Made by a program: the position numbers and the translations under genes
From: Mortierella sp. BCC40632
Taxonomy: Eukaryota; Mortierellomycota; Mortierellomycetes; Mortierellales; Mortierellaceae
NCBI GenBank assembly: GCA_011634665.1
Contig: WAEK01000006.1
Span: forward strand, 1,992,501-2,056,500
DNA length: 64,000 bases
Reading direction: 5' to 3'
Part shown: positions 4,271 through 59,643 of the stretch, piece by piece
Layout: each line of letters starts with the position of its first letter
Numbering within the stretch: position 1 is the stretch's first letter
The notes under the pieces: model-generated
Told to the model about the DNA's origin: nothing
What the model saw: only the letters and a program-made list of their open reading frames with translations
Database searches by the model: none

Positions 4271-7200
4271 TGCTTGCCGCTTCTTCTGCTACCTCTGCTT
4301 CTGTTTCTTCTGTTTCTTCTTCTTCGACTTCTTCGGCTTCATTTTCTTGGATGTCATCTTTCTCTTGTTCTTTGCTCTATTCACACAGTATTCTTCAGAG
4401 ACTCGGTCTGATGACTCGGTCTCCACCTTGTTACTCTTCATCGTCCGAGTATCGATTGCCAGATCCAGGTGCGTTCTGTCGTGGCGTAGTTGATCCATTG
4501 CTGCCACTGCCTCCGGCTCCGCCTCCAGGACTGTACATCGATCCTGGTCGTCCTGGTGTCGCTGCTCCACTGTTCGCTCCTCCTGCTCCTCCATATCCCA
4601 TCGGTGAGAACGATGGTGTCGCTGAACTGTAGCTCGGACTATAGCTTGGGCTCGCCGGCGAGTACGAAGGGCTCGTTGGCGAATAGCTTGGAGATGTCGG
4701 CGAGTACGATGGCGATGTTGGCGAGTACGATGGGCTCGTAGGTAGGTGAGTAGCTCGGAGACGTAGGCGAGTACGATGGGCTTGTCGGCGAGTACGATGG
4801 CGAGGTGGGAGAGTACGATGGCGATGTCGGCGAGTACGAAGGGCTTGTCGGCGAGTAGCTCGGAGACGTGGGCGAGTACGACGGCGACGTCGGAGAATAG
4901 CTCGGACTCGTAGGTGAGTACGATGGAGATGTGGGGGAGTACGATGGAGATGTGGGAGAGTACGCTGGAGACGTCGCTCCATATCCATGGCTCGTCGGCG
5001 AGTACGATGGCGACGTTGGCGAATATGATGGCGACGTTGGAGAGTACGAAGGGCTCGTAGGCGAATACGATGGAGACGTCGGTGAGTAAGAGGGCGACGT
5101 GGGAGAGTACGATGGCGATGTAGGAGAGTACGATGGGCTCGTTGGCGAGTACGAAGGGCTCGTTGGCGAGTAGTTGGGCGATGTAGGACTGTAGCTCGGC
5201 GACGTCGGACTGTATCCAGGACTTGTCGCATACATCGGAGAGCTAGGCGAGTATCCAGGCGATGCTGGAGAGTACCCAGGGCTCGTCGCCCCAAATGGAC
5301 TCGATGCATCCCACGATCCTGCTCCCATCGGAGAGCTCGCTCCAGAGTTGCCCATCGGCGAGAACACCGCATCCATCGGCGATCCAGGATGCGAAAAGTC
5401 CACATACATCGGCGATCGTGAATCGTACGGCGTCATCGACGATGCCATACCCTCGCCTCCCATGCCTCCCATCGCTCCCATTCCCATTCCCATTCCCATT
5501 CCCGGTCGTGGTCCCTCCACAACCGTACTCAACAGCTTCTCATCCAGCATCAGGTCAAACTCGCCAGTACCAAGAGGCGCCAGCTGGCCCAACATAATGT
5601 TCTCTGCCACTCCTCGGCAATCATCAAGCTCTCCAACCGCCGCTGCCTCCATCAAAATCTCCACCGTCTCCTCAAACGAGCACCGCATCAACGCTCCCGT
5701 CTCCGCTCGGTTGATACCGTGTCGAGTAATCGCCATCAAGTGGCCTCGGTGCGTCATCACATCACACAGCAACGACAAGTGTCGGTAGTTGACATACGAA
5801 CCGTCAAACTCAATCACCCCGCGAAGCTCCTTCAAAAGCGCCTGACGTGCCGCCTCAATACCAAGAACCTGCATCACCTCCCCGCAGTTGTTCGAGTATG
5901 TCCGCGACGCATCCACATCCTCCTCGCACATCACCGCCTTCAAGTTCGATCCGCTCGTTTCCAGGTACCACTCCATCTGCGATCCAAACGTGCCGTCCGA
6001 CTTGATAAACGTCCGCTTCTTCTCCACCATGTACACTCGAGAAATGTTCTTGATGCCTCGCAGGCTAATCGAGCTCAGCAAGCTGTTCTCAATCTTCTTC
6101 AGGAACACATCCTCCTCCTCCTGAACCTCAAGTTCCTTGTCCGCTGCCTCCTCACTAATAATTCTGCATCGGATAATCAGCTTCTCCGCGTTATCGTCAG
6201 AGCAAATACACAGCAAGTCTCGCTGGAAATCCTCAGAGATCTTGTTCGACACATCTGCCATCGTCAATTTCTTGTCCAGCATCATCTTGCGGTTCAACTC
6301 AATACGAAGCAGCCATGGCGACGTTCGTGCAAGGTTCAGCTCGTCATCCGGCATCGCATAGTACGCCGTCACAAAGTCCTGATCCTCCTCAATCAGCGTG
6401 TTCTCCGGATCGGGGTCATAGTGAATCTCTGTCGCAGACGTCACCTTCCGCAAATTGGTATACTCCAGTGCCACCTGAACCTGTTTCGCTCGCTCCATGT
6501 TGCGTGCACAGTCCGGCGTCAGGTACACATTCAACGACGGCGTCTTGATGTTCGTCGCCACGTTGATAATCTCCTTCAGACGAGGCACTCCCAGCGTAAC
6601 GTTCTTGGACGACACTCCTGCATAATGGAACGTGTTCAGCGTCATCTGCGTCGCCGGCTCTCCAATCGACTGTGCCGCCACCGTGCCAACCATCTCTCCC
6701 GGATTCACCAAAGAGTGAGCAAACCGCGATCCAATCTCTCCCACAACCCAATCAAACGCCTCTCGTGTCAAATGGAACTCCTCAATCACTCGACGAACCG
6801 CAAGCGTCGATCGGATCAGCATCTTGAACAGCAACGTCGCATTATCCTGCGCCTCAATGCTAATCCGGTCAGTGCCACGCACAACCATCAACTGCTTCTC
6901 CAGGTTCTTGACACTCTCCAGAACATGTCGAGGGTCCAGATCGCTTGGTCGCTTGTGGTCCACATGGAACATCTGCTTCGAGTTCCAGATATACCGCTTA
7001 ATGTTCGTCGGCATCGGCCATCCATCATCTCCCTCCGTGAAAATATAGTTCCGGAGCAAATGACGGTCCGTCTCCAGCTGCTTAAACTCTTGCTCCAAAA
7101 GAGTCTGCAAATCTGGCTCTCCACGCTTCGACGCCTCCACATCCGCCTCCTCAATCGACTTTAGCACAGAGTAATCCAGAGCTCCCGCCTTGAATCCCTT

Positions 7201-10200
7201 GTTCTTGTCCGTCAAATCCACGTGGAACTTCTTCTCAAACTGTGTATTCGACATCTTGACCGTATCCAATCGCTGCTTCTCCACAAAACAGGCATCCATT
7301 CCATCCTCGCCATAACAGAACTGAATCACATGTCCCAGCGAGTTGCGCACCGTGCCATCGTACTTGACCATCACATCCTCCAGTGCCTTCACCAGACGAC
7401 GCTGGATATATCCCGTCTCTGCAGTCTTGACAGCCGTATCAATCAATCCCTCACGTCCTCCCATCGCGTGGAAGAAAAACTCTTGAGGCGTCAGTCCTCG
7501 CAGGTACGAGTTCTCCACAAATCCTCGACTCTCTGGTGAATGGTCATCTTTCGTAAAATGTGGCAATGTCCGGTACTTGAATCCGAACGGAATACGCTTA
7601 CCCTCCACGTTCTGTTGACCCACACACGCCGTCATCTGCGACACGTTAATAAACGATCCCTTCGATCCTGAAATAACCATCTGCTTCACGTTATTGTCCT
7701 CTCGCAAACTCTGCTGTGCCATCTTGCCTGCATCGTCTCGAGCCGTATTCAGCGCCCTGTTCACAAGTGACTCAAACGTCTCCCGAAGTGTCATACCAGG
7801 CTTGCACTCCAGCTTGTCCTGCTGTGCCTGGATAATCAAATCACTCACATTGTTCGTCGCATTGTTGATGATCGATGAAATCCCCAGAACCGTGTTCCTG
7901 TCTGCCACCGTGTCTCCAATACCAATACTGAATCCATGCTGAAGCAACCAATAGTTCACCACCGTCTGGCATCCATTGAAAAATGTCTTGGCCACCTCTG
8001 GTCCGTGCTGGTTCATAATAACGTGGATCAACCCTCCTCCAGACGTACCCACCGTCTTCTTGCACACAATACCGCAAATCAACTCTCCGTTCTCAACAAT
8101 CACCTTGGTGTCTCCTGGTGAAATGTCGCTCTCCTCATTATCCGGATGCGTCGAGTGGAAGGTCACACAGTTGATGCCCTTGGGAATAATCATACTCACC
8201 AACTGCTTTCCCGTCCACAACGGCTTTGGCTTCAGAATCGCCGGCGTTGGCAAGAATCCCTCCCATCCTGGCACCCACATCACCAAGTTCATCACCATCT
8301 CCTTTGACAGGAAACAGTCGCGCTTTGTAAACTTGCGGATTCCACACAGCGTATCCTGCACAATACCCATTACAGGCTTGTTCGACTGTGGTGATACAAT
8401 CTGTCGCGGAACCATACAGATCTGCGTAATCTCTGCTCGTGTCTCTACCGACTGAGGAACGTGCAAGTTCATCTCGTCTCCGTCGAAATCCGCATTGTAT
8501 GGCGATGTCACAGAGAGATTGAGTCGGAAAGTCGAGTATGGCATCACTCGGATTCGGTGCCCCATCATCGACATCTTGTGTAGTGAAGGCTGTCGGTTGA
8601 AAATAACAACATCGCCATCATTGATATGGCGCTCAACCTTCCATCCCAGCTGCAGTGGCACCTCTCGCTTGTTCCATCTCAGATCAATACGCTGTCCATC
8701 GTCTCGGATAACATACACTGCTCCCGGGTGCTCCGTGGGTCCATTCCGTACAAGCTCCTGCAGCTTGTCAATGTTATATGGCGTCACCAGCTCTGGGTAC
8801 GTGAGCGTCCTTGCAATACTGCGTGGCACTCCGACCTCGTCAATCGAGAGATTGGGATCTCCTGTAATGACTGTACGTGCCGAGAAATCAACACGCTTTC
8901 CCATCAAGTTTCCACGCAGACGACCCTCCTTTCCCTTCAGACGCGCTCGGATCGACTTGAGCTATAGTGGTGGCGAAATGGTGGTGGCGAAATGATGGTG
9001 GCGAAATGGTGATGGCGAAATGGTAGTAGCAAGATAGGAAACAGAAAAGAAGAAAAGTTGTTGAGGAAGAAAGAAAAAGCCAATGTTAATCACAGCGAGA
9101 GTAGACAATCATAGACAACATTAAATCATTGAAAAGCAACAGTGGACTATTGCAGGGCCATCTTGGTCTGTTGTGGCCCACACTGGTCCTCCCCTCCCCT
9201 CCCCTTCTCTCCTCACTCACAGGTCGTCCGTTCTTGTGTGCTGCAGCTGGTTGACCTGCAATATCATTGTCCATATATGTCGCAACATGGTACTGGAGGA
9301 GCTGTTCGTGCTGTTGAATCAAATGTCCTGGCGTTCCATCCTGTGCACATCGATACACATCTGCATTCGTCTTGATAATCGCAAACAGCTTGTGTGTCAA
9401 GTCATCCTCTCCTGTGCTCGATCCGTCCATCTGAATACTCGGACGCACCGCCAGTGGAGGCACGGGAAGCACCGTCATAATCATCCATTCCGGTCGAGCA
9501 AACTCAGGCGACAAACCCATTGCCTCAATATCTTCGGTCGAAATGCGCTTCAAGATATGGTATGCATCACTGGGAGTCAATGTCCTCTTGCCTTCAGGTT
9601 GAGAATCCTACGAATGACCAAGTCCAACAAGGACCAAGGCCGCAGAGAGAGAAAGAAAGAAGGGGAAAACACGAGAACATACAAAAAAAAAGTACATAAA
9701 AGCACGCAATAGCACACAATATGAAAACTCGGTTAGTATCCAAACTTTCTCTCAGTCTCTCTCCTTCTCATCTTGTTTCCTCACAACACATTATCGCCTT
9801 ACATCGTTTGCATTAGCCTTGAAATTAATGCTCAGCCCAAGACCCTCCTTGCGAAAGATTGGCTGGCGGTGGCCGCATCCTCCGTGTGATTTCTTCTTGG
9901 GGATTGGGAGTCCATTCTCATCAATCTCCGCTTCGTCACCCATTGCTCCCTCAATATCATCGCCTCCCTCACACACCATCTTGGTCTTGGCCAACTCCCA
10001 CACAGCCTTCAGTCGCACTTTGGGGTCCCGGATCCTGCGTGCTCGCACAAACTTGCTGTTATTCTATGATTTTTTTTTTTTTTTTTTTTTTTTTGCAGCC
10101 ATTCGCAATGAGACATGAAGATAGACAGAGAGAGACGGGGGGAGATAGAGAGGATCAGAAACGTCAATCAGGCCTCGAGTCCGAGAATAACAATATCAAT

Positions 10201-11495
10201 ACATCTTCTTCGACTCTGCTTCCATCATCTTCCTCCACTTACATCGTCCACCTTGAGCTTCGAGCACGAGAAACAGACACATTCAAGAATCTTTTTCACT
10301 TTGGTCAGGAAACCTATCAGAATCAAGTTCAGTTAGGTAATCGTGTAAGCTCGGCTTTTGACCTTGCATCTCCTAGTCCCCCCTTCGTCTCTCTCTCTCT
10401 TTTTCTCTCTTTCTCTCCTTCTCTCTCCTTCTCTCTCTCTCTCTTTCTCTCTTTCTCTCTTTCTCTCTCCTTCTCTCTCTTTCCTTTGTTCTATCACTAC
10501 CACCACCACTACCACCACCACTAAATTCATCCGCAACTCCCAGCTACATGGTACAACTAACCCCCCTCCTCATCACTACCACCACCACCTCCACTGCCTA
10601 ACCACAATCATGAATCATGGATCATTCTAATTCTTTACCATTGAGGTACACAGGCTTGGCTAGTTCAATATGTCCAAAATGTCCTGGACATTCAGCCATG
10701 CCCTCAGAACAGGTCTGACATTTGAAGTTGCGGTTGATCGTTCCCATCCTTGGGTCATGGAGACCTCCGATCTTGGGTCGTTTCGTGCCTTCGTCAATCA
10801 GCTCTGCGTGCTCGATCTTGGCTACTGACATGTTTTTCTGTAATGATGTTTCCACCACCACCCCGCACCCGCAGAGAAAGAAAGGAGCGAGAAGGAGGGC
10901 AGAGGATAAGGAAAATATAGGGAAAGAAGTTTGATCCATGTGTTCAGCCATACAGCTCAAAAGCAATTTTTTCTTTCTTTCTTTCTTTCTTTTTCTTTTC
11001 TTTTTTTCCTGCTCTGATTCTATCCACAGGTCCCAGTAGCACCAATAAAGAAAATAAAGACAAAAGAAGGAGTTGCAGCTGCACAATCACTCCATATAGA
11101 GTAAGGGGCGATGTGAAAAGGCCATTGTTCGAGTGACAGAGATGCAGTGGATAGCAGTGGATAGCAGTGGCAATCACCCATTGATAACCCAAATGCCAAG
11201 CGTCCAAGCGAGAAAAAGCGAGAAAGAAAGCGAGAAAGAGATTGTAGCCGCTTTATCAAAGACAAGGCTACTACCATCTTTTCACCCATGCTTATCACTA
11301 ACAGGCCGCGATGGAGTTGCATTTCGTGTGAACAGGGAGTCAAGGAGACAATGGAAGGGCACGTACGATTTCCTCGGGTGAGAGAATACCAAACTGGACG
11401 CAGTCAACGCGCCGCAGAGGTGCGGACGAGTATGCGAATCTGCTGGCACTCATGCTCGATGCTCACGACTCAAGAGAGGGAAGATAGAGGGGAGA
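4271..11495. repeat. Inverted-repeat arm A (whole RPB1 gene)
   Basis: This stretch is repeated in inverse orientation at 19035-26238. The outer edge is sharp: from 4271 inward the sequence matches the reverse complement of 26238 inward, while bases outside differ. The inner edge lies about 40 bp upstream of the RPB1 start codon, where similarity fades after a 5-bp indel. The arm therefore covers the gene from about -40 to about 160 bp past the stop codon. Introns are present in both arms, so this is a DNA-level duplication and not a retrocopy. The arms differ mainly by small indels and homopolymer length, for example the T-run at 10071-10095 in intron 3. Confidence 0.93.
4431..11453 (-). CDS. 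RPB1: RNA polymerase II largest subunit, copy A
   Basis: Catalytic subunit of nuclear RNA polymerase II. Six exons: 11367-11453, 10639-10837, 10243-10313, 9803-10063, 9221-9607 and 4431-8961, with consistent phases. About 1,843 residues are expected. Visible landmarks are the N-terminal [11 protein letters not shown], the clamp zinc site (CQTC and CPGHFGH), the catalytic [16 protein letters not shown] with its three metal-binding Asp, the bridge/trigger region ([21 protein letters not shown], then [11 protein letters not shown]) and a C-terminal domain of about 30 YSPTSPS heptads ending in SDDEE. One degenerate heptad pair ([10 protein letters not shown]) interrupts the array. A 4-bp CTAC duplication near 4738-4745 shifts the frame, so read literally the last five or so heptads are lost and the chain ends at 4639. 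The 340 bp upstream hold a GGTGACGTA element absent from copy B. Confidence 0.95.
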
Positions 11496-11687: not shown

Positions 11688-11709
11688 GCGTCCTAATTAC
11701 GTCACCGAG
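11688..11709 (-). promoter_or_regulatory. CRE-like GGTGACGTA element upstream of RPB1 copy A
   Basis: On the sense (minus) strand the core reads GGTGACGTAATTAGG, 235-256 bp before the RPB1 start codon. It matches 19 of 22 positions with the block 84-105 bp upstream of SF3A1 (38031-38052), and its core GGTGACGTA recurs upstream of SPT6 (32583-32591). TGACGTA is the known binding core of ATF/CREB-type bZIP factors. No copy is seen upstream of RPB1 copy B. Confidence 0.5.
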
Positions 11710-11740: not shown

Positions 11741-11776
11741 GTGACTGACATGTTTGCAAACATGCATATAAGTCAC
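11741..11776. repeat. Long inverted repeat with a perfect 16-bp palindrome
   Basis: The outer arms GTGACT and AGTCAC enclose the perfect palindrome CATGTTTGCAAACATG (11749-11764). It lies 17 bp beyond the XPG-Fanzor stop codon, next to an A-run (T-run on the gene's strand). It could be a transcription end signal, a mobile-element end, a protein-binding site, or part of a structured guide RNA. The sequence alone does not decide. Confidence 0.6.
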
Positions 11777-11792: not shown

Positions 11793-14700
11793 CTACTCTG
11801 GCGCTATTGCTATCATTTTAGAGGGTCTTGGGTCATTTGATGCTTCGTCTGCCCTCCTTTTGGACTTGGCCCTGTGTTCCCATGTGTAATTCCCATCCTT
11901 GTCGACGGGCTGAAGATACCTTGGCCGCTGTTGGTCCACCAAGTGTCCCCGTACCACATTCGCGATGTTGTGACCCGCAAGTACATCCCGATGAATAAAA
12001 GCCTTACAGCGCGGGCAATACAGTCTGCGGATCTCCACTTCTGCCACAAAGTTGTGGCATACTGGGCATTTCTTGCTTGTGTAAAATTCATTTACACCGA
12101 CTACTAAATAGCCGAGAGATCGTGCCTAAAGGATTAGGGCGTACAGTCGTGAGTGATGAGCGATTGAAGGTTGCTCCAAGACCAAGTTGTAGTATCTACT
12201 TACCGTCTGAATAAAGAAAGACTTGAACGACTCGTGGAGAGAGGAGAGCCGACCGCTGGATGAGAATTCTCCGAGGCCAACGCCGATAATGACCTTCTCA
12301 TCATTCGATCGTCTCCTTCCTATGGACCCCCCAACCATCTTCAGCAAGCTATTGGCGATGTGCTTGTACTCCTCGTCGCGGGCCCTTCGTGCGTTCCACC
12401 TGTGCTTTTGTAGTTTCTCCTCGTTGTAAAATCCCTCGATCTGGTCCTCTATCTCTTTCAGAGCCTTGACATGATCGCTGATGCTCCCCTGCTCACCACG
12501 GAGTGGTGGTAGTCTACTTTCAAGTGTGCTGATTGTGACGTCCGAGCCCTCTGCAATTGGCGCGTTTTTCTTTCTTTCCAACCAAGATCGGTACTTGAAC
12601 GTGGGTTGATAAACGGCCTTTTGGTTCACAGTCAAGTTGACAAACTTTTGGGGTGCATTCTTCGAACTTGGCAGAAGTGCGCTCGCCCCCACAACGAACG
12701 ACTGCCCAAGATCGATGCCCAATACTTTGATTTCCTCGGGCTTGCACCCCCAAAGGTCCGAGACATCCTTTTTAGTCCGGATAACGTTCCGGACTTCGGA
12801 GAGGTAAAAGTCTGTCCCTCCGAGCGTGGAGTTGAGTTGGCTGGGCATTTCCTTCTGGGGATATCGCCTATACTTGACTCCATTCAACTCGTTAAGTTTG
12901 TATGCCAACGGCTGAAGGAGGAACCCATCGGTCTTGATGGATCCTTGCAGGGCATATCCGCGTGTTTGGTAAGCCTCGGCTACAAAAGGCTTCGTCTGAA
13001 GGCTTTTCAAGTGTTCTCTCATTTGATCGATTGGCATTGCGATTGTTTTTCTCTTGAACCCTCTGGGCGCTTTAGTCTTTTCCCCTCCATCTTCTGGCGG
13101 AGACCCGATGTCTGTCATCAATCGTGTGATGATAAATCCTGGCTCCTTACCTGACAGCCATAGCTCGATATCCACAAGGGCAAGATACTCCATGGGGGTG
13201 TTTGGGAAATCTTCAGAAGCATAAGACTGGAGCTTTTTCTTGAGGACCTCCTCTTTCCAAAATATTCCGCAAAGCTCTCGCTCGGTAAAAGAGAAAAACG
13301 ACGGCCCTGGATGCGACAACGGAGACGGCTTTCGTCGATTCTTGCAGGCATTATTCAGTCTTTTAAAGTTTTCAATCGAGGAAAGCTGTGGGTCTATTAC
13401 GCTCACTGCGCTTGGTGGCAATAGTCCTTTTTCCTTCATTGCAGCGTTCTGAAAAAAAAAAAAAAAATCGTATTAGTTAATGCATGATTGGTAAAGCGAG
13501 CTGCGAGCTAATTCAGACTTACTCTGTCGCAGACTTCTCGAGACCCATTCTTAAAGTGTTTCCGCAACTCTATCGAGAGTTGTAACGCCGCTGAGGCTAA
13601 GAATATACTGCCTGAACAACTGCTCTCATCCTTGATGGGCTTTGCCGGCAAAAGGTCCTTGACTTTACTGAAGAGCATGGTAACTTGAGGGACTACGGAT
13701 TTGGCACCTTCTTTGAGTTTTTTGACTGTAGGCGGCCGTCCGTTGTACACACTAACGAGGAATGACAGTAAAAATCGGACTTGTAGGTCTTTCGCCGCGT
13801 TCTCGGGCTGTTCGATGTACTGGCCTATTATTTGCTGGCAAGCGCGCTTGGTCTTCGAAGCCATCCGAGTCGCCTCCTTGATACATTTTTTTATCGCGGC
13901 CCCTACTGCAGAACCTTTGCCGTGTAGACGATTTAGGTTGCCACTGACCGTCCCGACACTGAGGCTTCGAAGGGGATGTTCCCACTGCATAAGCTTTTTC
14001 AACCCCGTCTTATCCAGATCTCCAATGGCTTTCGATGAGTAAGACTTAGTTGGGTTACTGACGTCTGGATTTTTTGTTGCAGATCTTGGGGTTACTTCTG
14101 GGCTCTCGGCTGACTTGGTGGGCGGCTTCCATGTGTACACCTTCATTGCGTCGGGGGGAGGATGTTCAGTCTGGCGGACACGCGTCGTGTGGGAGTACCG
14201 CTTTCTAAACTTGAACTTTCTCCCCGACGGATGAGGATCCGGCCACTGGATCGGGGGACGATTGAGCGGACAGTACTGATTGTCGGGTGTATCACCGAGA
14301 ACGCGTCTGTCAGTCCTCAAATCCCTATTACGAATGGATGGAGATTATGTTAGATCAGAGTATCAAATATCAAAGATCACGAGTTACAATCGGTGGGAAT
14401 ACCTTTGTGCCTTCTCCTTCTCAACTTTTAACTGTGTCTGCACGTTGTGGAGCCGCGCACACATCTTGTCGAGCTCTTGTCCTTGAGATTTCTTGAGGGA
14501 TGATGCTGACCGGATGTCAGTTTGCTCGCGATCTACGAACACTTTCAAGGCCATACCAAAACTTTTGCGAGTTTTGACTTTGCTTTTTACTTGGCCATGC
14601 TTCAAGTAGCTTGACACGAGACGCCTCGGATCTATGAGCCAGTGGATGGAGTCAGAGACGCATTCATAAATTCAGAATAAACGGTTTATATTTACAAATG

Positions 14701-15493
14701 ACTAGTTCCTACCTTCGACTGTACTCAGCGACTGGATAACCTTGAGATTAGTTTTTGGCCCCATCGTGGCAATGTGGGGGGTGTAGTCATTGCCACTTAC
14801 GACACACAGGGCCGTGAGTTGATGCCTTGAGATTTTGAGTAGCTCGCACAGCTCTTGTACATCATAGGCGAGGAATCGATTTCTTGAGATTGGCCTCCAA
14901 ATGGTGGCAACCGAGGCGTAGGCAAACATATCGCTGTCCATTGAAACAACAACATCTTCAGGTTCGGCATCCTGGGCGATTTGGACGTCTGCCTCGTGTT
15001 GACATAACCTAACGTCCCAGCCTTTAACTGTCATGTACTCGGCAAAGTGTTTCCTAGCTTCAAGGGTCCAGTAAAACCCAGATTTGAGCTTCTTGCTGAG
15101 GTTGATGAACTGACGCTTTCGGACGCGACGGCGCTCGCGCACTCGTGTTTCAATCGTTTCGAGGATTTCTTGAGCTTGTTCAAGGGCACCTTCACGTTTC
15201 TATTCACGGCTCTTGCAAGTTCGCAGCTTCTCGCTTGGAGTTTCGCCGTCCAAGTACAAGACCGACGATGCTGGAAGGAATCCACGTCTTAAAATCTCGG
15301 CCTCAAGAATTTCATGTGCGACGCTGGAGATGTGATGCATGAAAGCTGTGCGGATTTTTGGAAAGAAAGAGGAAAGGACATCGATTCGAAAAATATTGGG
15401 GGTTCCTGAGGTTGGGGGGCTAAACGGAGGAGAGAAGAGCGTTGCCTGATAGCCATGGTCGCGGATACATCCCCAAAGGCCAACAATCCCCAT
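11793..15493 (-). CDS. XPG/FEN1-like nuclease fused to a Fanzor (TnpB-like) nuclease, with one in-frame stop
   Basis: Five exons (14713-15493, 14403-14631, 13523-14324, 12204-13448, 11793-12125) join in consistent phase into about 1,129 codons. Residues 1-260 form an XPG/FEN1-type domain: MGIVGLWG start, then D38 (FRID), D82 (YLDGE), E167/D169 (HEADVQ), D186/D188 (SMDSD) and D236 (GNDYTPHI, in the helix-turn-helix). The spacing closely follows FEN1 D34, D86, E158/E160, D179/D181, D233. A basic, coiled linker follows. The Fanzor part has RuvC-I D850 (VLGIDLG), RuvC-II E998 (GVGLGEFS), TSKKC at 1035-1039, zinc-finger Cys 1039, 1042, 1056, 1059 and RuvC-III HRDVLAGHNIAN with D1066. This fits the published Fanzor pattern D-x(125-275)-[TS][TS]xx-C4-x(5-50)-RD. 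Codon 98 is TAG (15200-15202); the frame continues unchanged after it. Fanzors are RNA-guided DNA endonucleases carried by transposons; the role of the flap-nuclease part is unknown. Confidence 0.85.
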
Positions 15494-16565: not shown

Positions 16566-16874
16566 TCACTTACTCCTAAAAGGCACACTACCAAGGTCAA
16601 TCCCTAGTACTTTCACTCTTTGTCGGACCTCATCTGGAGAGCATCTCAAAAGATCTTGAGTGTCACTGACCAAAGCGAACACGCTTTTGACCTCCTTCAA
16701 GTAGTACTCAGTACCACCTGTGATTGACAGAAGTGGATTTGGTAGGTCTCTATCCGGGAACCGTTTGAAGTGCACACCCCAGCAATTCTTTCTTTTGATG
16801 AACGTGAAGTTGAGGTTTGTGCCTGTCGGTTGGAGCAACCCGCGCATGATGTAGCCTAAAAACCCACTCGACAT
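16566..16874 (-). pseudogene. Relic of an XPG-Fanzor relative: RuvC-I segment
   Basis: A 102-residue frame that parallels the region of the intact gene just before and through RuvC-I. Shared landmarks are the GxxLQP start, GGTEYYLKEVKSV (GGTDFYLSEVRNV in the intact gene), a Cys-x-Pro-[DE]-E segment and VLGIDLG. It then stops. Sequence is clearly diverged from the intact gene, so this is an older copy and not a recent duplicate. It lies downstream of relic RuvC-II/III sequence on the same strand, so it belongs to a separate copy or to a rearranged one. Confidence 0.75.
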
Positions 16875-16889
16875 TGAGGAAGAACAGAC

Positions 16890-17266
16890 TTCCCTAGCCT
16901 GGCATCCTCTCCTTTATGAGTTTCATCTGCCTTGCGTTTTACGACCTTTTCCTCATGTTGGTCTGGTTGCATATCGATTTTGTTTTGTCATGGGTAGTTG
17001 TCATCCGCATCAACTGGCTGTAGGAACTTGGGACGCGTCTGCTTGATAAGCTGTTGGCAAACTATATTGTATATGTTGCGCGTAGAGAGCACATCTGCGT
17101 AGAAAAATGTCCTGTATCGCGAATAGAAGAGACGCTAGATATCGACCTGAGCGACAAATTTCTGGGCAATTCATTGACGTATCAAGGATGCATAACCTAA
17201 CCTAATGATATTGCCTGTGAGCAACCAATGATCCAATCTTTAGGAATTTTTAGAGATCTTTGGGAA

Positions 17267-17300
<34 letters not shown>

Positions 17301-17530
17301 ATACTCATACTCATACTCATATTTTCTCGTCGGACGGAACTCTCCTTGAAAGACTTGTGGAGCGTCATGAGCCTTGACTTCGAAGAGAACTCACCTAAGC
17401 CTGCACCGATAATGGCTAGAGCATTCAAAGCTTTTGATTCACCCTTTACTTTCTTTGCCACAAATGGTTGGACAAGATTCTTGGGGGCTTCTGGATCGAT
17501 CTCTAGTCAGCTTCTCCAAGGCTTCTATTC
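16890..17530 (-). pseudogene. Relic of an XPG-Fanzor relative: RuvC-II, RuvC-III and C-terminal tail
   Basis: Reading down the minus strand: ALAIIGAGLGEFSSKSRL (about 17430-17360) matches the RuvC-II segment VIIGVGLGEFSSSGRL of the intact gene. After a poly-A stretch (T-run at 17270-17299), the 17150-16960 segment matches RuvC-III and the tail: YADVLSTRNIYNI corresponds to HRDVLAGHNIANV, and RPKFLQPVDADDNYP to RPRYLQPVDKDGNYT. The second cysteine pair is damaged (one Cys is now Tyr) and the Arg of the Arg-Asp pair is Ala, so this copy is dead. Several frame breaks interrupt it. Confidence 0.7.
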
Positions 17531-19034: not shown

Positions 19035-26238
<7,204 letters not shown>

Positions 26239-52688: not shown

Positions 52689-55600
52689 TCAGAGGGAGCC
52701 CCCATGGCTCCGCATTGGGAGTTGAGGGCGGGTTTTGGATCCAGCAATTAGCGACTGGTGTTCATGTTGATATGGCCTGAAAGGTCGAATAGGCTTTCGG
52801 CCCCGCTTTGGCTTGGGACTCTTGGCCTCCTCCACCTCCATACTTTCTTCCTCCTTCTTTTCCTCCTCATCCACTTCCATATTTTTCTCAATCACCTCCT
52901 CTTTCCCCATCATTTCCTCCTCGCCGTTCTCCTCACCTAACCCCAGAGCAGTGAATCCTGCGATAGCAATGTTCATGCTCGCTTGGCCGTCCCGAGAGGC
53001 CTCACCGTGTACCCGGCCAGAAAGCCACAGCATACAGGGTTGATACACTCGACCGCACCATGGATCCGAACTATCTTGGACTTGCCATCGATCAGTCTAC
53101 GCTGGCGCGCGAGCCTCGTTTTCTGAAAACACAGGTGGCAAGTTTTCGAAGTCATAAATTCGTCAGTGATGCACACTACACTGTGCTGCCTGTGCTCCGC
53201 GCGGATCTTGGTGCCCCCTCTGCGGGCGTGGCCTCCCAAGCGTGATCCAACAGCAGATCCCGCCGCACCAACAAATCCGACATATCGCACGTCAGGCCGG
53301 GTCTTCGTGCAGTAGCCTGGGTGGCAGAACCTTGTCGATGAGTTTTTCTGAAACTCAAACCGGGAACAGCGGCTGCAATAGCCACTGTCTTTGTCGACCG
53401 AGGCCAGACCATGTGCCTGAGGTGGTAGCGATTGGATGGCACGTTCAGCTGCCTGACGCCGTACAGCACTGCAGAGTGCTGCTTGGGCCCTTCTGGAGAA
53501 AATGACCTGAGTCTTCTTGGCCTTGACGAGAGATCGGGTCTGGTTAAATTCACGCAATGTCGCCGACACCGATGCTCTGGCTGCTTGGGCAGTCTCCACA
53601 GCGCTTATTGTCGAGGCGTTTGCAAACGATGCATCTATGGAAGAAATGCTGTCTAGTGCCTGTTGTACAAGCTCATTCTTCTTGTGTTTCAAGAGATCCT
53701 GTCGGACTTGGGCGAGTTTTCGGGTCCTTGACACCTCGTTCAGTTGTCGGGCAGTGATGGTGATGGTGTCGGGCAATTTCAACGCCTTTGCCTCCTTCCG
53801 GAACTGCTTTTTCTCCTCCAGAGTTCTTGGCAAAGGTGGTGGAAGATTAATGTCGCTATCCTCCAAACCTAAAAAGAGAAGTAAGCAGAATGAGAATGGG
53901 CTTGAAATTGGCAAAACAACCATTGGTGTATTCTCTTTGCATAAACTTACTTTCCAAAACGTGGAAGCGGTTCACTGCGACCTGGATTTCGGGAATAGTT
54001 ACTGGTAAGTTTTCCGACATCTTGACCAGCCCAGGATCTTCGGCCCATGTGGCCACCACTCGAGTCCTTCCTGCTTGCGACTTTGTCCCGTGTGATGACG
54101 CCAAGTCAGAGATATCAATGCCCTTGAGGTGTGTCCTCTGCTCGACTGTGGTCCCAAGTCGAGATGGTAAGGGTCGGTTTGTTGGGGTTCATCGCAGTCT
54201 TGCTTTTAGATGAGTTAGAAGCAGTACTCTTGGCCCCGGTAAGGACCCGGGACCAATAGTTCAAAATACTTTTTTCGCTTGTGCATAAGCGTCCTCCAGC
54301 TTCATGAGCTTTTGCTCTTCGATCCGCAGTTGATACTGTTGGTCCTTGAGTTGTCCGAGCTGATGATGGCGCTCTTCCGGTGAACTCTGCTAAAAAGGCG
54401 CGTGCGGCGACAGTGCAACGTCTCCGCAAGGTGCGAACAATCTTTCTTGGATCATCCAGTGTCTTTTTCAGATCATTGATACTCGATTTTGTTGTGTCGA
54501 TCTTGGCCTCGACCTCCTCCTTCGTGAGACCACATTGTACGAATGCTCGCTTCCATCGACCAGTGTCTACAGTGCCTCTGGTAACTTTGATTTTGTGCTC
54601 ATATGTGCTGACGACAGGTTGCCGTGTGCCACCGGCAGGGATCTGCGGACCAGAGAGCTGAATCATGCCTTTGTTGATGTACACCATGCTACAATGAGAG
54701 AGAAAGCGTGTGAGTGTAAAAGTTAATTGGACTGCTCGTAACAAGAGAGAACGTGCTCAGAGTAATAAAAAAAGATCTCGGTGCATACCGTTTGCCAAAC
54801 CTGAAACCGTGGTCCACACAGGCCTTTTCTATCTTGTGCCAGTCAAAGAACGATTTGAATACCTGGGACTTGTTCGACTCTGGGCTTGTGACATTCTGAA
54901 CATTGGTGAGAGACTGTCCCTGGACGTCTAAAATATCAAAATGGCCTGCCTTCTTGTTGCATAGTGTCTCGAATAGCTGTTGTGCGCCTAGAATAAGGCC
55001 ATGAAGGCTTCCTGTCGCCATGTGCGGGCAAATCTTGCGTGCGTAATCCTTATGACCCAATAATCCAAGTATTGCATTTGAGATTAAGATCAGAGGCGCG
55101 TCGAGTGCAACATGTTGAGTGTGTGGACGGTAATTCCCTTCGACTGGACCTTTGTATCGCTTAGGGACGTAAGGTCGGAGGCAATTAACGATTCTCGTTA
55201 CTACGGAGAGCTCTTTGTCGGTAAAATCCTTGTCTTCAAAGGCAGATTCACGGACATGCTCAAGGGAGTAGTTAGTCCTGGTCGACGGCGACTCCAATAA
55301 GACTTTAGCTAATGCCTGTAGCGATGCGAGGCGTTTGCGATCTGGCTCCGTGACTTTTTTGTGTCAACAGCGGTCGGGTTTGCGAGGATACTAGGTGCTT
55401 CGACATCCATGAGCTGGTCTTGTGCAACTTGCATGTCAAACTCAAGCATCTTGAGCTCATATTCACCATCCAGATCACTCGGTTCTTGCTCGTCCAACTC
55501 TTCCAACTCTTGTTTGTCAAGCATGTCTTCGTCAGTAGTCATTTCGGGCATCGGCGGTAGAGGCTTGATTAGTGATGTGTCGCCCCCCGCTCGGTGCAGT

Positions 55601-58347: not shown

Positions 58348-59643
58348 CTACAAATGTTGTTCTCTAGCGCACTTCGGGAAAAACGACAGGGAATGCATGA
58401 TCCAGCCGTGAATATTCTCCGTGGTGATGGACCTTAAAGATTCTTTAATGCGACTCTCTACCGTCTCCGTCTTGTTGATTACACGACTCCCAAAACAGGA
58501 CTTGACCTTGGACCAGCATTCCTCAATAGGATTCAAAAATGGTGAGTATCGTGGCAAAGGGAGGTACCGATATCCACGCAGCTGAATGATGTCTGCAACA
58601 CCATTGTGGATGGGCGCATTATCCATCACCAAGGTGCAGCCCTTCATCTCGGTTTTGTCCAATTGGTCCATGAGGCTAAAAACAAAGGCCCGAAAGTGCT
58701 TGGCTGTGGTTCCCTTTCGTTCATTTTCCGAACCAGTCCTCAATCTACTCTTCTTGCTCGTCGAAGCCGACTTTGGTAGAACAACAGTCATGTCAACGAT
58801 ACCCTGCACACAAATGGCTCCGATGACCGTGTAATTCTTGCCCTTGCTGTTTGGGACAAGCTGTGTTGCTCGCTCACCCTCTCTAGCCCATCCCACGCGA
58901 CGAATGATGTGCATGTTGAACCCTGCCTCGTCAATAAAGATACAGCGATTGACAAAATCGTTGTAATGGCCTGTCCATGCCTCGACCCAGTTGTATCGCT
59001 CGTTGATGACACTCGGATCGTTCCTGATCTGAGGAATCTTGATAACACGTTTCAAGGATAAGCGACATTCATTCCTCATATGCGTGTAAATCGTTGATTT
59101 TGACACTTTCAATGCTTGGAACTTCTCATTCAGGGTTTTATGAATGCTCTCAACTGTCAGGGTCGCCTGGTTTGCGACCAGTGACAGGATGAACTCTGTG
59201 TGCTCTTTGTGTCAACTGCCTTTCGGGCTTCTTCGTCCTGGGGTTTCTCTTCAGCATCATTGAAAGCTCGACATCTGGGTTGTCCAGATAGCATCTAATG
59301 AATCGATATGCGGTGCTCCTAGGCAGGTTTGCGTGCTTTGCTGCCTTGTCCACCGACAAATCTTTGATCATGAATGCCTCGATCAGCGACTCAAGTTGCT
59401 TCTCTGAGGCTTTAGTGTACGTAGATCGAGGGCCACACTTTATCTTTGGAGCTTGATCGGACGCCTTCTCCCTCCGACTACCAGGGTCAGAGGCAGAGAG
59501 GTTTTTTTGTGCTGGGCAGCCTGGAAGTCGTGTAAATCCATCAATGACCGCAGACGACTGTCATTCCTGGAGGTGTTGGAGTCAGCATTATGCTCAACGC
59601 CGGTGCCTTGGGACTGGATGAGCTGTGGTGCTGGGAAGGCCAT
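58348..59643 (-). pseudogene. IS630/Tc1-mariner-type DDE transposase, two homopolymer frameshifts
   Basis: Cut-and-paste transposase. The N-terminal part has a helix-turn-helix (DKAAKHANLPRSTAYRFI), then a second DNA-binding region, then the RNase H-like core. Catalytic residues: D in IFIDEAGFN, D in LVMDNAPIHNG and E in YSPFLNPIEE, with 32 residues between the second Asp and the Glu of NPIE, and the SPFLNPIE box typical of this superfamily. Two frame breaks are visible, both in A-runs on the coding strand: near 59500 (a base short) and near 59208 (a base too many). Correcting either would extend the frame without stops, so the gene was recently intact or is intact with sequence errors. It is upstream of, and codirectional with, the Fanzor1-like gene, a pairing known from Fanzor-bearing DNA transposons. 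Confidence 0.85.

What the first reader, a model, noticed from the sequence alone, without database searches (positions are those of the whole stretch)
11793..15493. XPG/FEN1-type flap nuclease fused to a Fanzor RNA-guided nuclease
Seen: five exons join in phase into one protein. It has all the metal-ligand positions of the FEN1 fold (D38, D82, E167, D169, D186, D188, D236, codon 98 being the stop) followed by a complete Fanzor module (D850, E998, TS at 1035-1036, C4 finger, RD at 1065-1066). Known: Fanzors are eukaryotic TnpB homologues that cut DNA guided by an RNA, and FEN1/XPG enzymes cut 5' flaps and bubble structures. Inference: one enzyme could make the guided cut or R-loop and process the resulting flap, or the XPG part could mature the guide or help element repair. 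I do not know of a described XPG-Fanzor fusion, but I could not search for one.
Basis: partly seen in the sequence, partly recalled or inferred. Interest (0 to 1): 0.92.

Follow-up and report, generated by a model that had tools for sequence, protein, structure and literature searches.

The report
Flap nuclease fused to Fanzor nuclease
In Mortierella-type soil fungi, a family of jumping genes encodes one long protein that joins a DNA-repair-type flap-cutting enzyme to an RNA-guided DNA cutter of the Fanzor kind, a pairing I could not find described, although the copy read here carries a stop codon that probably silences it.

Summary
Five exons at 15493-11793 (minus strand) join in phase, with one in-frame TAG at codon 98. 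The N-terminal part is a FEN1/Rad2-family 5' nuclease with all its active-site residues; the C-terminal half is Fanzor1-like. The fusion recurs: 24 of 43 XPG loci in this genome are followed on the same strand by a Fanzor match (0.14 expected), copy C9 is open end to end, and 21 of 130 public proteins, from five Mortierellaceae genera, carry both parts. Seven of eleven copies examined lie beside a MULE-type transposase; some have 8-bp target duplications, and a right-end motif follows 19 Fanzor copies. No paper found names both Fanzor and XPG. Inferred role: RNA-guided R-loop or cut plus 5'-flap or end processing, favouring recombination that restores the element. The window copy is probably a recently disabled member. 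No structure prediction was possible.

The parts
14713..15493 (-). exon 1: ATG and first ~260 residues of the FEN1/Rad2-type 5' nuclease (ligands D38, D82, E167, D169, D186, D188, D236; K89, R96)
15200..15202 (-). in-frame TAG at codon 98, the only stop in 1,129 codons
14403..14631 (-). exon 2: end of the FEN1-like fold (the family profile aligns to an archaeal FEN1, 1a76, up to its residue 319) and coil
13523..14324 (-). exon 3: linker and middle region (MID), conserved in the family, no Pfam match
12204..13448 (-). exon 4: Fanzor part with T-D-G motif and RuvC-I D850
11793..12125 (-). exon 5: Fanzor catalytic E1032, C4 zinc finger, RuvC-III D1066; TAG stop 11793-11795
14632..14712 (-). intron 1 (phase 1)
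14325..14402 (-). intron 2 (phase 2)
13449..13522 (-). intron 3 (phase 0)
12126..12203 (-). intron 4 (phase 0)
11749..11764 (-). hairpin CATGTTT-GC-AAACATG just after the stop; comparable hairpin in 8 of 9 lineages chosen; candidate part of the guide RNA or a 3'-end signal
11696..11707 (-). right-end motif CGGTGACGTAAT, found downstream of 19 of 64 Fanzor loci, each time on the same strand

Best explanation
It is a member of a multicopy, mobile gene family of Mortierellaceae whose product is one polypeptide: a FEN1/Rad2-family 5' nuclease, a middle region of unknown fold and a Fanzor1-like RNA-guided RuvC nuclease (shown by sequence; my confidence about 0.95). Better-kept copies lie in MULE-type DNA transposons with a divergent transposase gene next to it (about 0.85). 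Most likely working (inferred, about 0.35): the Fanzor half, guided by an RNA read from the element's right end, opens an R-loop at and cuts the empty donor site or an allelic site; the 5' nuclease half then cuts the R-loop flank, removes 5' flaps or resects 5' ends there, so that repair copies the element back by recombination instead of sealing the empty site. The copy in the window is probably a recently disabled member (one stop, no recognisable transposase).
For: One protein: the four splice positions and phases recur in C9, which is open from Met to stop; exon 2 continues the FEN1 fold; exon 2 plus MID share one exon in C1, and MID plus most of Fanzor one exon in C18; 19 of 130 public proteins carry XPG, MID and Fanzor and 2 more XPG and Fanzor. 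Both nucleases: family profile to RAD2 4.2e-12 and an archaeal FEN1 6.3e-11; the nine FEN1 positions are kept in 131 of 133 residues compared, summed over positions, in public proteins, and Fanzor D850 in 118 of 118, E1032 in 43 of 43, D1066 in 35 of 36. Constraint: dN/dS 0.24 in XPG and 0.16 in Fanzor between copies C7b and C18. Element: SWIM, MULE and FAR1 matches, transposase pieces just upstream in 7 of 11 copies, target duplications, right-end motif, hairpin. Substrate: PMC7286691 reports that purified human XPG cuts one flank of R-loops (passage), so a Fanzor R-loop is a plausible substrate.
Against: No structure prediction, no transcript, no small-RNA data. XPG is below Pfam's cut-off, or unmatched, in the window protein and in 5 of 6 public proteins scanned. 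RuvC-I reads D-L-G, not the D-P-G said to be near-exclusive in Fanzors, in the window and in 98 of 129 rows. No transposase found beside the window copy, C1, C18 or C7b. 40 of 64 Fanzor loci have no XPG match within 5 kb; the few I could look at were 5'-truncated or differ upstream, so XPG-less relatives are not excluded. 19 of 43 XPG loci have no Fanzor match; of 7 of these examined, 4 keep pieces of MID and 1 a Fanzor end, 2 (L017, L023) show neither within 1.5 kb. The link between the two activities is inference only.
Confidence: 0.55

Rival explanations
1. The XPG half serves the MULE transposition itself (trimming flaps or gaps at excision or insertion), and the Fanzor half acts separately; fusion only keeps them together.
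For: The fusion sits beside a MULE-type transposase in 7 of 11 copies; 8-bp target duplications imply ordinary staggered insertion.
Against: Other MULEs move without such a nuclease (recalled); does not explain why the two nucleases stay on one chain across divergent subfamilies.
Confidence: 0.25
2. The XPG half matures the guide RNA (cuts a 5' flap or structure of the right-end transcript).
For: A hairpin lies 10-56 nt after the stop in most lineages looked at; FEN1-family enzymes can cut structured 5' ends (recalled).
Against: TnpB and Fanzor relatives process or use their RNA without such a domain (recalled); no RNA data here.
Confidence: 0.15
3. The XPG fold is a non-catalytic DNA- or protein-binding module.
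For: Some XPG-like proteins (Mkt1, Asteroid) are thought to lack activity (recalled); Pfam scores are weak.
Against: The seven acids and the two basic residues of FEN1 are kept in nearly every sequence; dN/dS 0.24.
Confidence: 0.08
4. Two neighbouring genes joined by annotation or by my exon choice.
For: Exon 1 alone would end in a stop three codons after the donor site; P0010 and P0011 are XPG-only records.
Against: Exon 2 belongs to the FEN1 fold; C1 has exon 2 plus MID, and C18 MID plus Fanzor, in one exon; recurring intron phases.
Confidence: 0.03

Closest known systems
Fanzor1 (SpuFz1, PpFz1, GtFz1; PMC10432273, PMC11423790) and the Fanzor1 transposons of Bao and Jurka 2013 (PMC3627910)
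   Same: RuvC triad with Glu six residues before a C4 zinc finger, T-D-G motif, carried by eukaryotic DNA transposons; Mucoromycota Fanzor1 elements of MuDR type without a transposase gene are described in PMC3627910 (one section read)
   Different: An N-terminal FEN1/Rad2 nuclease and a middle region are fused on; RuvC-I mostly D-L-G; several elements keep a transposase gene. The extra domain known in PpFz1 is a RuvC insertion that binds cyclophilin, not a nuclease (passages)
FEN1/XPG(Rad2)/EXO1/GEN1 5' nucleases
   Same: same fold by profile over residues 1-~320 and the same catalytic acids, Lys and Arg
   Different: part of a mobile RNA-guided nuclease; one single-sequence search found no free-standing close relative, only one partial record
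TnpB of IS605/IS607 elements
   Same: works like: element-encoded guided nuclease with a conserved right end (role of the right end recalled)
   Different: no second nuclease on the chain; eukaryotic MULE-type context with target duplications

Membership tests
FEN1/Rad2 5' nuclease family | profile similarity over N and I regions | tested here: met
   RAD2 4.2e-12, archaeal FEN1 6.3e-11, best chain named only Flap endonuclease 1 (5zog) 1.6e-8; Pfam XPG_I below cut-off
FEN1/Rad2 5' nuclease family | seven acidic metal ligands and the Lys/Arg of the active site (FEN1 numbering recalled, pairing from printed alignments) | tested here: met
   all present in the window; 131 of 133 residues in public proteins summed over nine positions
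FEN1/Rad2 5' nuclease family | 5'-flap or 5'-exonuclease activity | not testable with these tools
   needs purified protein
Fanzor1 | Glu six residues before CxxC...CxxC...D (Ealt) | tested here: met
   window residues 1032-1066 match; 37 of 142 sequences match the whole string, many others being partial; definition from PMC10711439 passages
Fanzor1 | D-P-G at RuvC-I | tested here: not met
   D-L-G in the window; P in 11 of 129 rows, C18 being D-P-G. So I call it Fanzor1-like
Fanzor1 | T-D-G motif in the wedge domain | tested here: met
   GSIKTDG at 773 in the window; 80 T-D-G and 20 T-N-G in 142 sequences, many partial
Fanzor1 | RNA-guided DNA cutting with a right-end RNA | not testable with these tools
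   only a conserved right end was seen
MULE/MuDR transposon | MULE transposase gene in the element | tested here: met
   C25 element: SWIM 7.9e-7 above cut-off, MULE 3.8e-4 and FAR1 3.2e-3 below cut-off; pieces in 7 of 11 copies, not beside the window copy, C1, C18 or C7b
MULE/MuDR transposon | about 9-bp target duplication and terminal inverted repeats | tested here: inconclusive
   read by eye: 8-bp duplications at C3, C15, C2b (a run of A) and C1 (its right end is of another subfamily); none at C4b; C25 5'-truncated; no clear inverted repeat (on the truncated C25)

The most novel reading that the evidence does not exclude
A natural single-chain machine in which an RNA-guided nuclease and a structure-specific 5' nuclease act in sequence: the Fanzor part opens an R-loop or cuts at a site chosen by the element's right-end RNA, and the FEN1/XPG-type part cuts the R-loop flank, resects or trims that end, biasing repair to recombination, so that the transposon re-enters its sites by programmed homing.
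Probability: 0.33. Interest if true: 0.93.

Novelty: new variant of a known kind. Interest (0 to 1): 0.82.

Why it matters
Fanzors are the eukaryotic RNA-guided nucleases and their biological role is unsettled. A lineage that has welded one to a repair-type 5' nuclease and keeps both active sites, in several copies beside a transposase gene, makes the role directly testable: if the pair favours recombination, it supports a homing model and offers a natural cut-and-process enzyme. It also points to an annotation blind spot: 20 of the 21 fused public proteins carry no XPG domain in their precomputed Pfam labels.

Tried and rejected
Rejected: E998 as catalytic Glu (6 of 114). Two separate genes (see rivals). 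A viral source: one scan of viral contigs, which used two short patterns from the XPG start only, gave 26 stretches and no confirmed relative. Free-standing XPG ancestor: one single-sequence search found one partial record; the tool needs shared short exact words, so distant ancestors are not excluded. A clean target motif next to each insertion: I could not define element B's 5' end. A first pattern for the right end had a wrong spacing and was not used. Structure prediction: not available. dN/dS of the window gene against C9, C25, C6b and C1: synonymous sites saturated or nearly so.

Papers. PMC3627910: passages and one whole section. PMC10711439: passages. PMC10432273: one passage, an author's name. 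PMC11423790: passages. PMC12719977: passages; Fanzor only in a reference title, FEN1 for prime editing. PMC7286691: passages; XPG on R-loops, TnpB in another paragraph. All other papers: search listings and abstract starts only. Not in print, by these searches: Fanzor with XPG 0 papers; Fanzor with Mortierell- 0; TnpB with XPG 1, the Cas12a paper above; TnpB with flap endonuclease and fungal 0; Fanzor with flap 15, ten listed, reviews or editing papers by title; Fanzor with Rad2 none among eight listed of 154 that hold two of three terms; broader lists (20 of 1,761 listed; 15 of 1,016 listed) show none. The Sci. Adv. 2023 Fanzor survey is not held.

Full report
What is there. On the minus strand, 15493 to 11793, five exons join in phase through four short GT-AG introns. 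The product would be 1,129 residues; the only stop inside is a TAG at codon 98. A Pfam scan of the joined protein (X at the stop) finds the Cas12f1-like TNB zinc finger (2.3e-12, above cut-off) and XPG_I (0.0018, below cut-off).

The N-terminal part. A profile of five family members matches solved structures of Rad2 (4.2e-12), an archaeal FEN1 (6.3e-11), XPG, FEN1, EXO1 (8e-5) and GEN1 (2.8e-4). With ten rows the match to the archaeal FEN1 1a76 (M. jannaschii, recalled) runs to residue 319 of that chain, so the FEN1 fold spans exons 1 and 2. In public proteins the nine FEN1 active-site positions read D38 9 of 9, D82 12 of 13, K89 13 of 13, R96 12 of 13, E167 15 of 15, D169 15 of 15, D186 17 of 17, D188 18 of 18, D236 20 of 20. 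The FEN1 residues to which they correspond are recalled; the pairing follows the printed alignments, the first Asp by eye. A count that adds this genome's copies, some of them counted twice or nearly identical, gives the same picture.

The C-terminal part. E1032 stands six residues before the first CxxC, the 'Ealt' of Fanzors (passages of PMC10711439), and the whole E-x6-CxxC-x(12-18)-CxxC-x(4-8)-D string matches in the window and in 37 of 142 sequences, many of which are partial. The T-D-G motif that this paper gives for Fanzor1 is present at 773. The D-P-G that it calls near-exclusive is not met: D-L-G here, D-P-G in 11 of 129 rows. A sequence search of solved structures with the Fanzor half lists LaTranC (9e-5) and the TnpB-like protein L79 (6.3e-4), no chain named Fanzor. 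I therefore say Fanzor1-like.

One protein. In this genome of 49.9 Mb, 77 Fanzor-part and 46 XPG-part matches (lower bounds by the tool's own note) merge to 64 and 43 loci; 24 XPG loci are followed on the same strand by a Fanzor locus within 5 kb, 0.14 expected. Of the 19 unpaired XPG loci I examined 7 fetched ones: 4 keep pieces of the middle region, 1 a Fanzor end behind a deletion, 2 (L017, L023) neither within 1.5 kb; several of the other 12 are weak matches that may be host repair genes (not checked). 40 Fanzor loci have no XPG match; two further XPG queries did not find XPG beside the better ones such as C6:2147744, C6:2605049 and C11:1387960, with one N-terminal piece near C10:1036339 as an exception. 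Of gene models of 11 copies, C9, C6b, C1 and C3 have no stop, and among these only C9 is free of dubious extra introns; the splice positions of the window gene keep phases 1, 2, 0, 0 there. C1 carries exon 2 and the middle region in one exon, and C18 the middle region and most of Fanzor in one 760-residue frame. Among 130 public proteins from two searches (the second returned 194, of which 120 were listed) 19 hold XPG, middle and Fanzor, 2 XPG and Fanzor, 3 XPG and middle, 2 XPG only, 27 middle and Fanzor, 77 Fanzor only; in none of the last two groups do more than 250 residues precede the match, so they are short at that end and show no other N-terminal domain. Length limits of the tool keep the longest proteins out of the second search, so these shares are not frequencies. 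The 21 fused proteins are named from five genera, Mortierella, Linnemannia, Dissophora, Podila and Actinomortierella; one species of each was looked up and is in Mortierellaceae.

Selection. Between copies C7b and C18 dN/dS is 0.24 in XPG (249 codons), 0.16 in Fanzor (501), 0.53 in the linker (105); 0.13 in the middle region (219), where dS is saturated and the alignment poor. Both copies carry stops. The window copy has no near-identical sister (best 54%) yet only one stop, which suggests recent loss, a sequencing error or read-through; I cannot tell which.

The element. Copies C25 and C3 are 99.1% identical over 6.9 kb that include, upstream and on the opposite strand, a gene with SWIM, MULE and FAR1 similarity. 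FAR1-type pieces lie in the same place in C3, C2, C4, C11, C9 and C6b at 33-49% identity; none was found beside the window copy, C1, C18 or C7b. Flanks, read by eye, show 8-bp duplications at C3, C15, C2b (a run of A) and, pairing a 5' end with a right end of another subfamily 14 kb away, C1; not at C4b, and C25 is truncated. The motif CGGTGACGTAAT occurs 49 times against 7 for the reversed control; 19 of the 49 lie within 1.5 kb downstream of a Fanzor locus, all 19 on the same strand, none within 1.5 kb upstream, 0.09 expected per side (64 loci, the 13 further pieces of the same loci dropped). Near-identical copies are among the 19. The window copy has it at 11696-11707. Between stop and motif lies a short hairpin. 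I took 9 loci, one per lineage, out of 13 with a readable stop (of 19 tried), after seeing the sequences; left out were D_C18, F_C12, C6d and C7c, the last two with 5-base stems only. Of the 9, 8 have a stem of 5 or more within 80 nt, its 5' arm holding TGT, with different stems; C6b has none. No shuffle of 1000 reaches 8 of 9; singly, 10 to 264 of 1000 shuffles reach the stem seen, for C6b 861. Such right ends are where guide RNAs of Fanzor and TnpB come from (recalled); here that is inference.

How it may work. Shown: two nuclease parts with kept active sites on one chain, in several copies beside a MULE-type transposase. Inferred: guided R-loop formation and cutting by the Fanzor part and R-loop-flank, flap or 5'-end processing by the XPG part at the same place, to favour recombination that restores the element. 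PMC7286691 reports that purified human XPG cuts the 3' flank of R-loops (passage). Rivals are given with their odds. Nothing here measures activity.

Novelty. I found no paper with Fanzor and XPG, nor with Fanzor and Mortierell-; the library lacks most subscription papers and the Sci. Adv. survey. Public records of the fused proteins call them hypothetical or unnamed. It is a new architecture of a known kind.

Noticed in passing
window 4271-11476 and 19052-26238: 7.2 kb inverted duplication, 99.3% identical, that carries an RPB1-like gene (named by eye, no search) on each arm; the fusion gene lies in the 7.6 kb spacer. Differences are 9 mismatches and 17 gap openings, and frames are broken in the right arm; a real fold-back duplication or an assembly artefact.
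   Followed up: partly
window 16566-17506, minus: Broken second fragment of a related Fanzor just upstream of the fusion gene (the longer frame by eye).
   Followed up: no
window 52973-55363, minus: Frames with a different Fanzor-like string (E-x6-CxxC by eye; the one frame scanned has no Pfam TNB match), about 3 kb from a DDE_3 transposase at 58348-59211 (1.6e-21): perhaps a mariner-type Fanzor element.
   Followed up: partly
L057, L058, L063, L064, L068, L072: Element A sits directly after the 3' end of element B, separated only by A's apparent target duplication, at two places (C2, C15); at C1, C3 and C4 a TGACGT- or TGACAT-like string also lies just upstream of A. Target preference unexplained.
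   Followed up: partly
L005, L083: A 1.9 kb copy (98.1% identical to C1) that holds only the Fanzor exons, starting near the exon 4 acceptor and keeping the last intron.
   Followed up: partly
L004: A Fanzor copy 74% identical to subfamily F whose upstream 0.7 kb shows no middle region but another open frame of 198 codons.
   Followed up: partly
genome G000: 30 of the 49 copies of CGGTGACGTAAT are not within 1.5 kb of a Fanzor locus; they may mark non-autonomous elements or target sites.
   Followed up: no
L029: Subfamily D copy in which the Fanzor end follows the XPG part directly, the middle apparently deleted.
   Followed up: no
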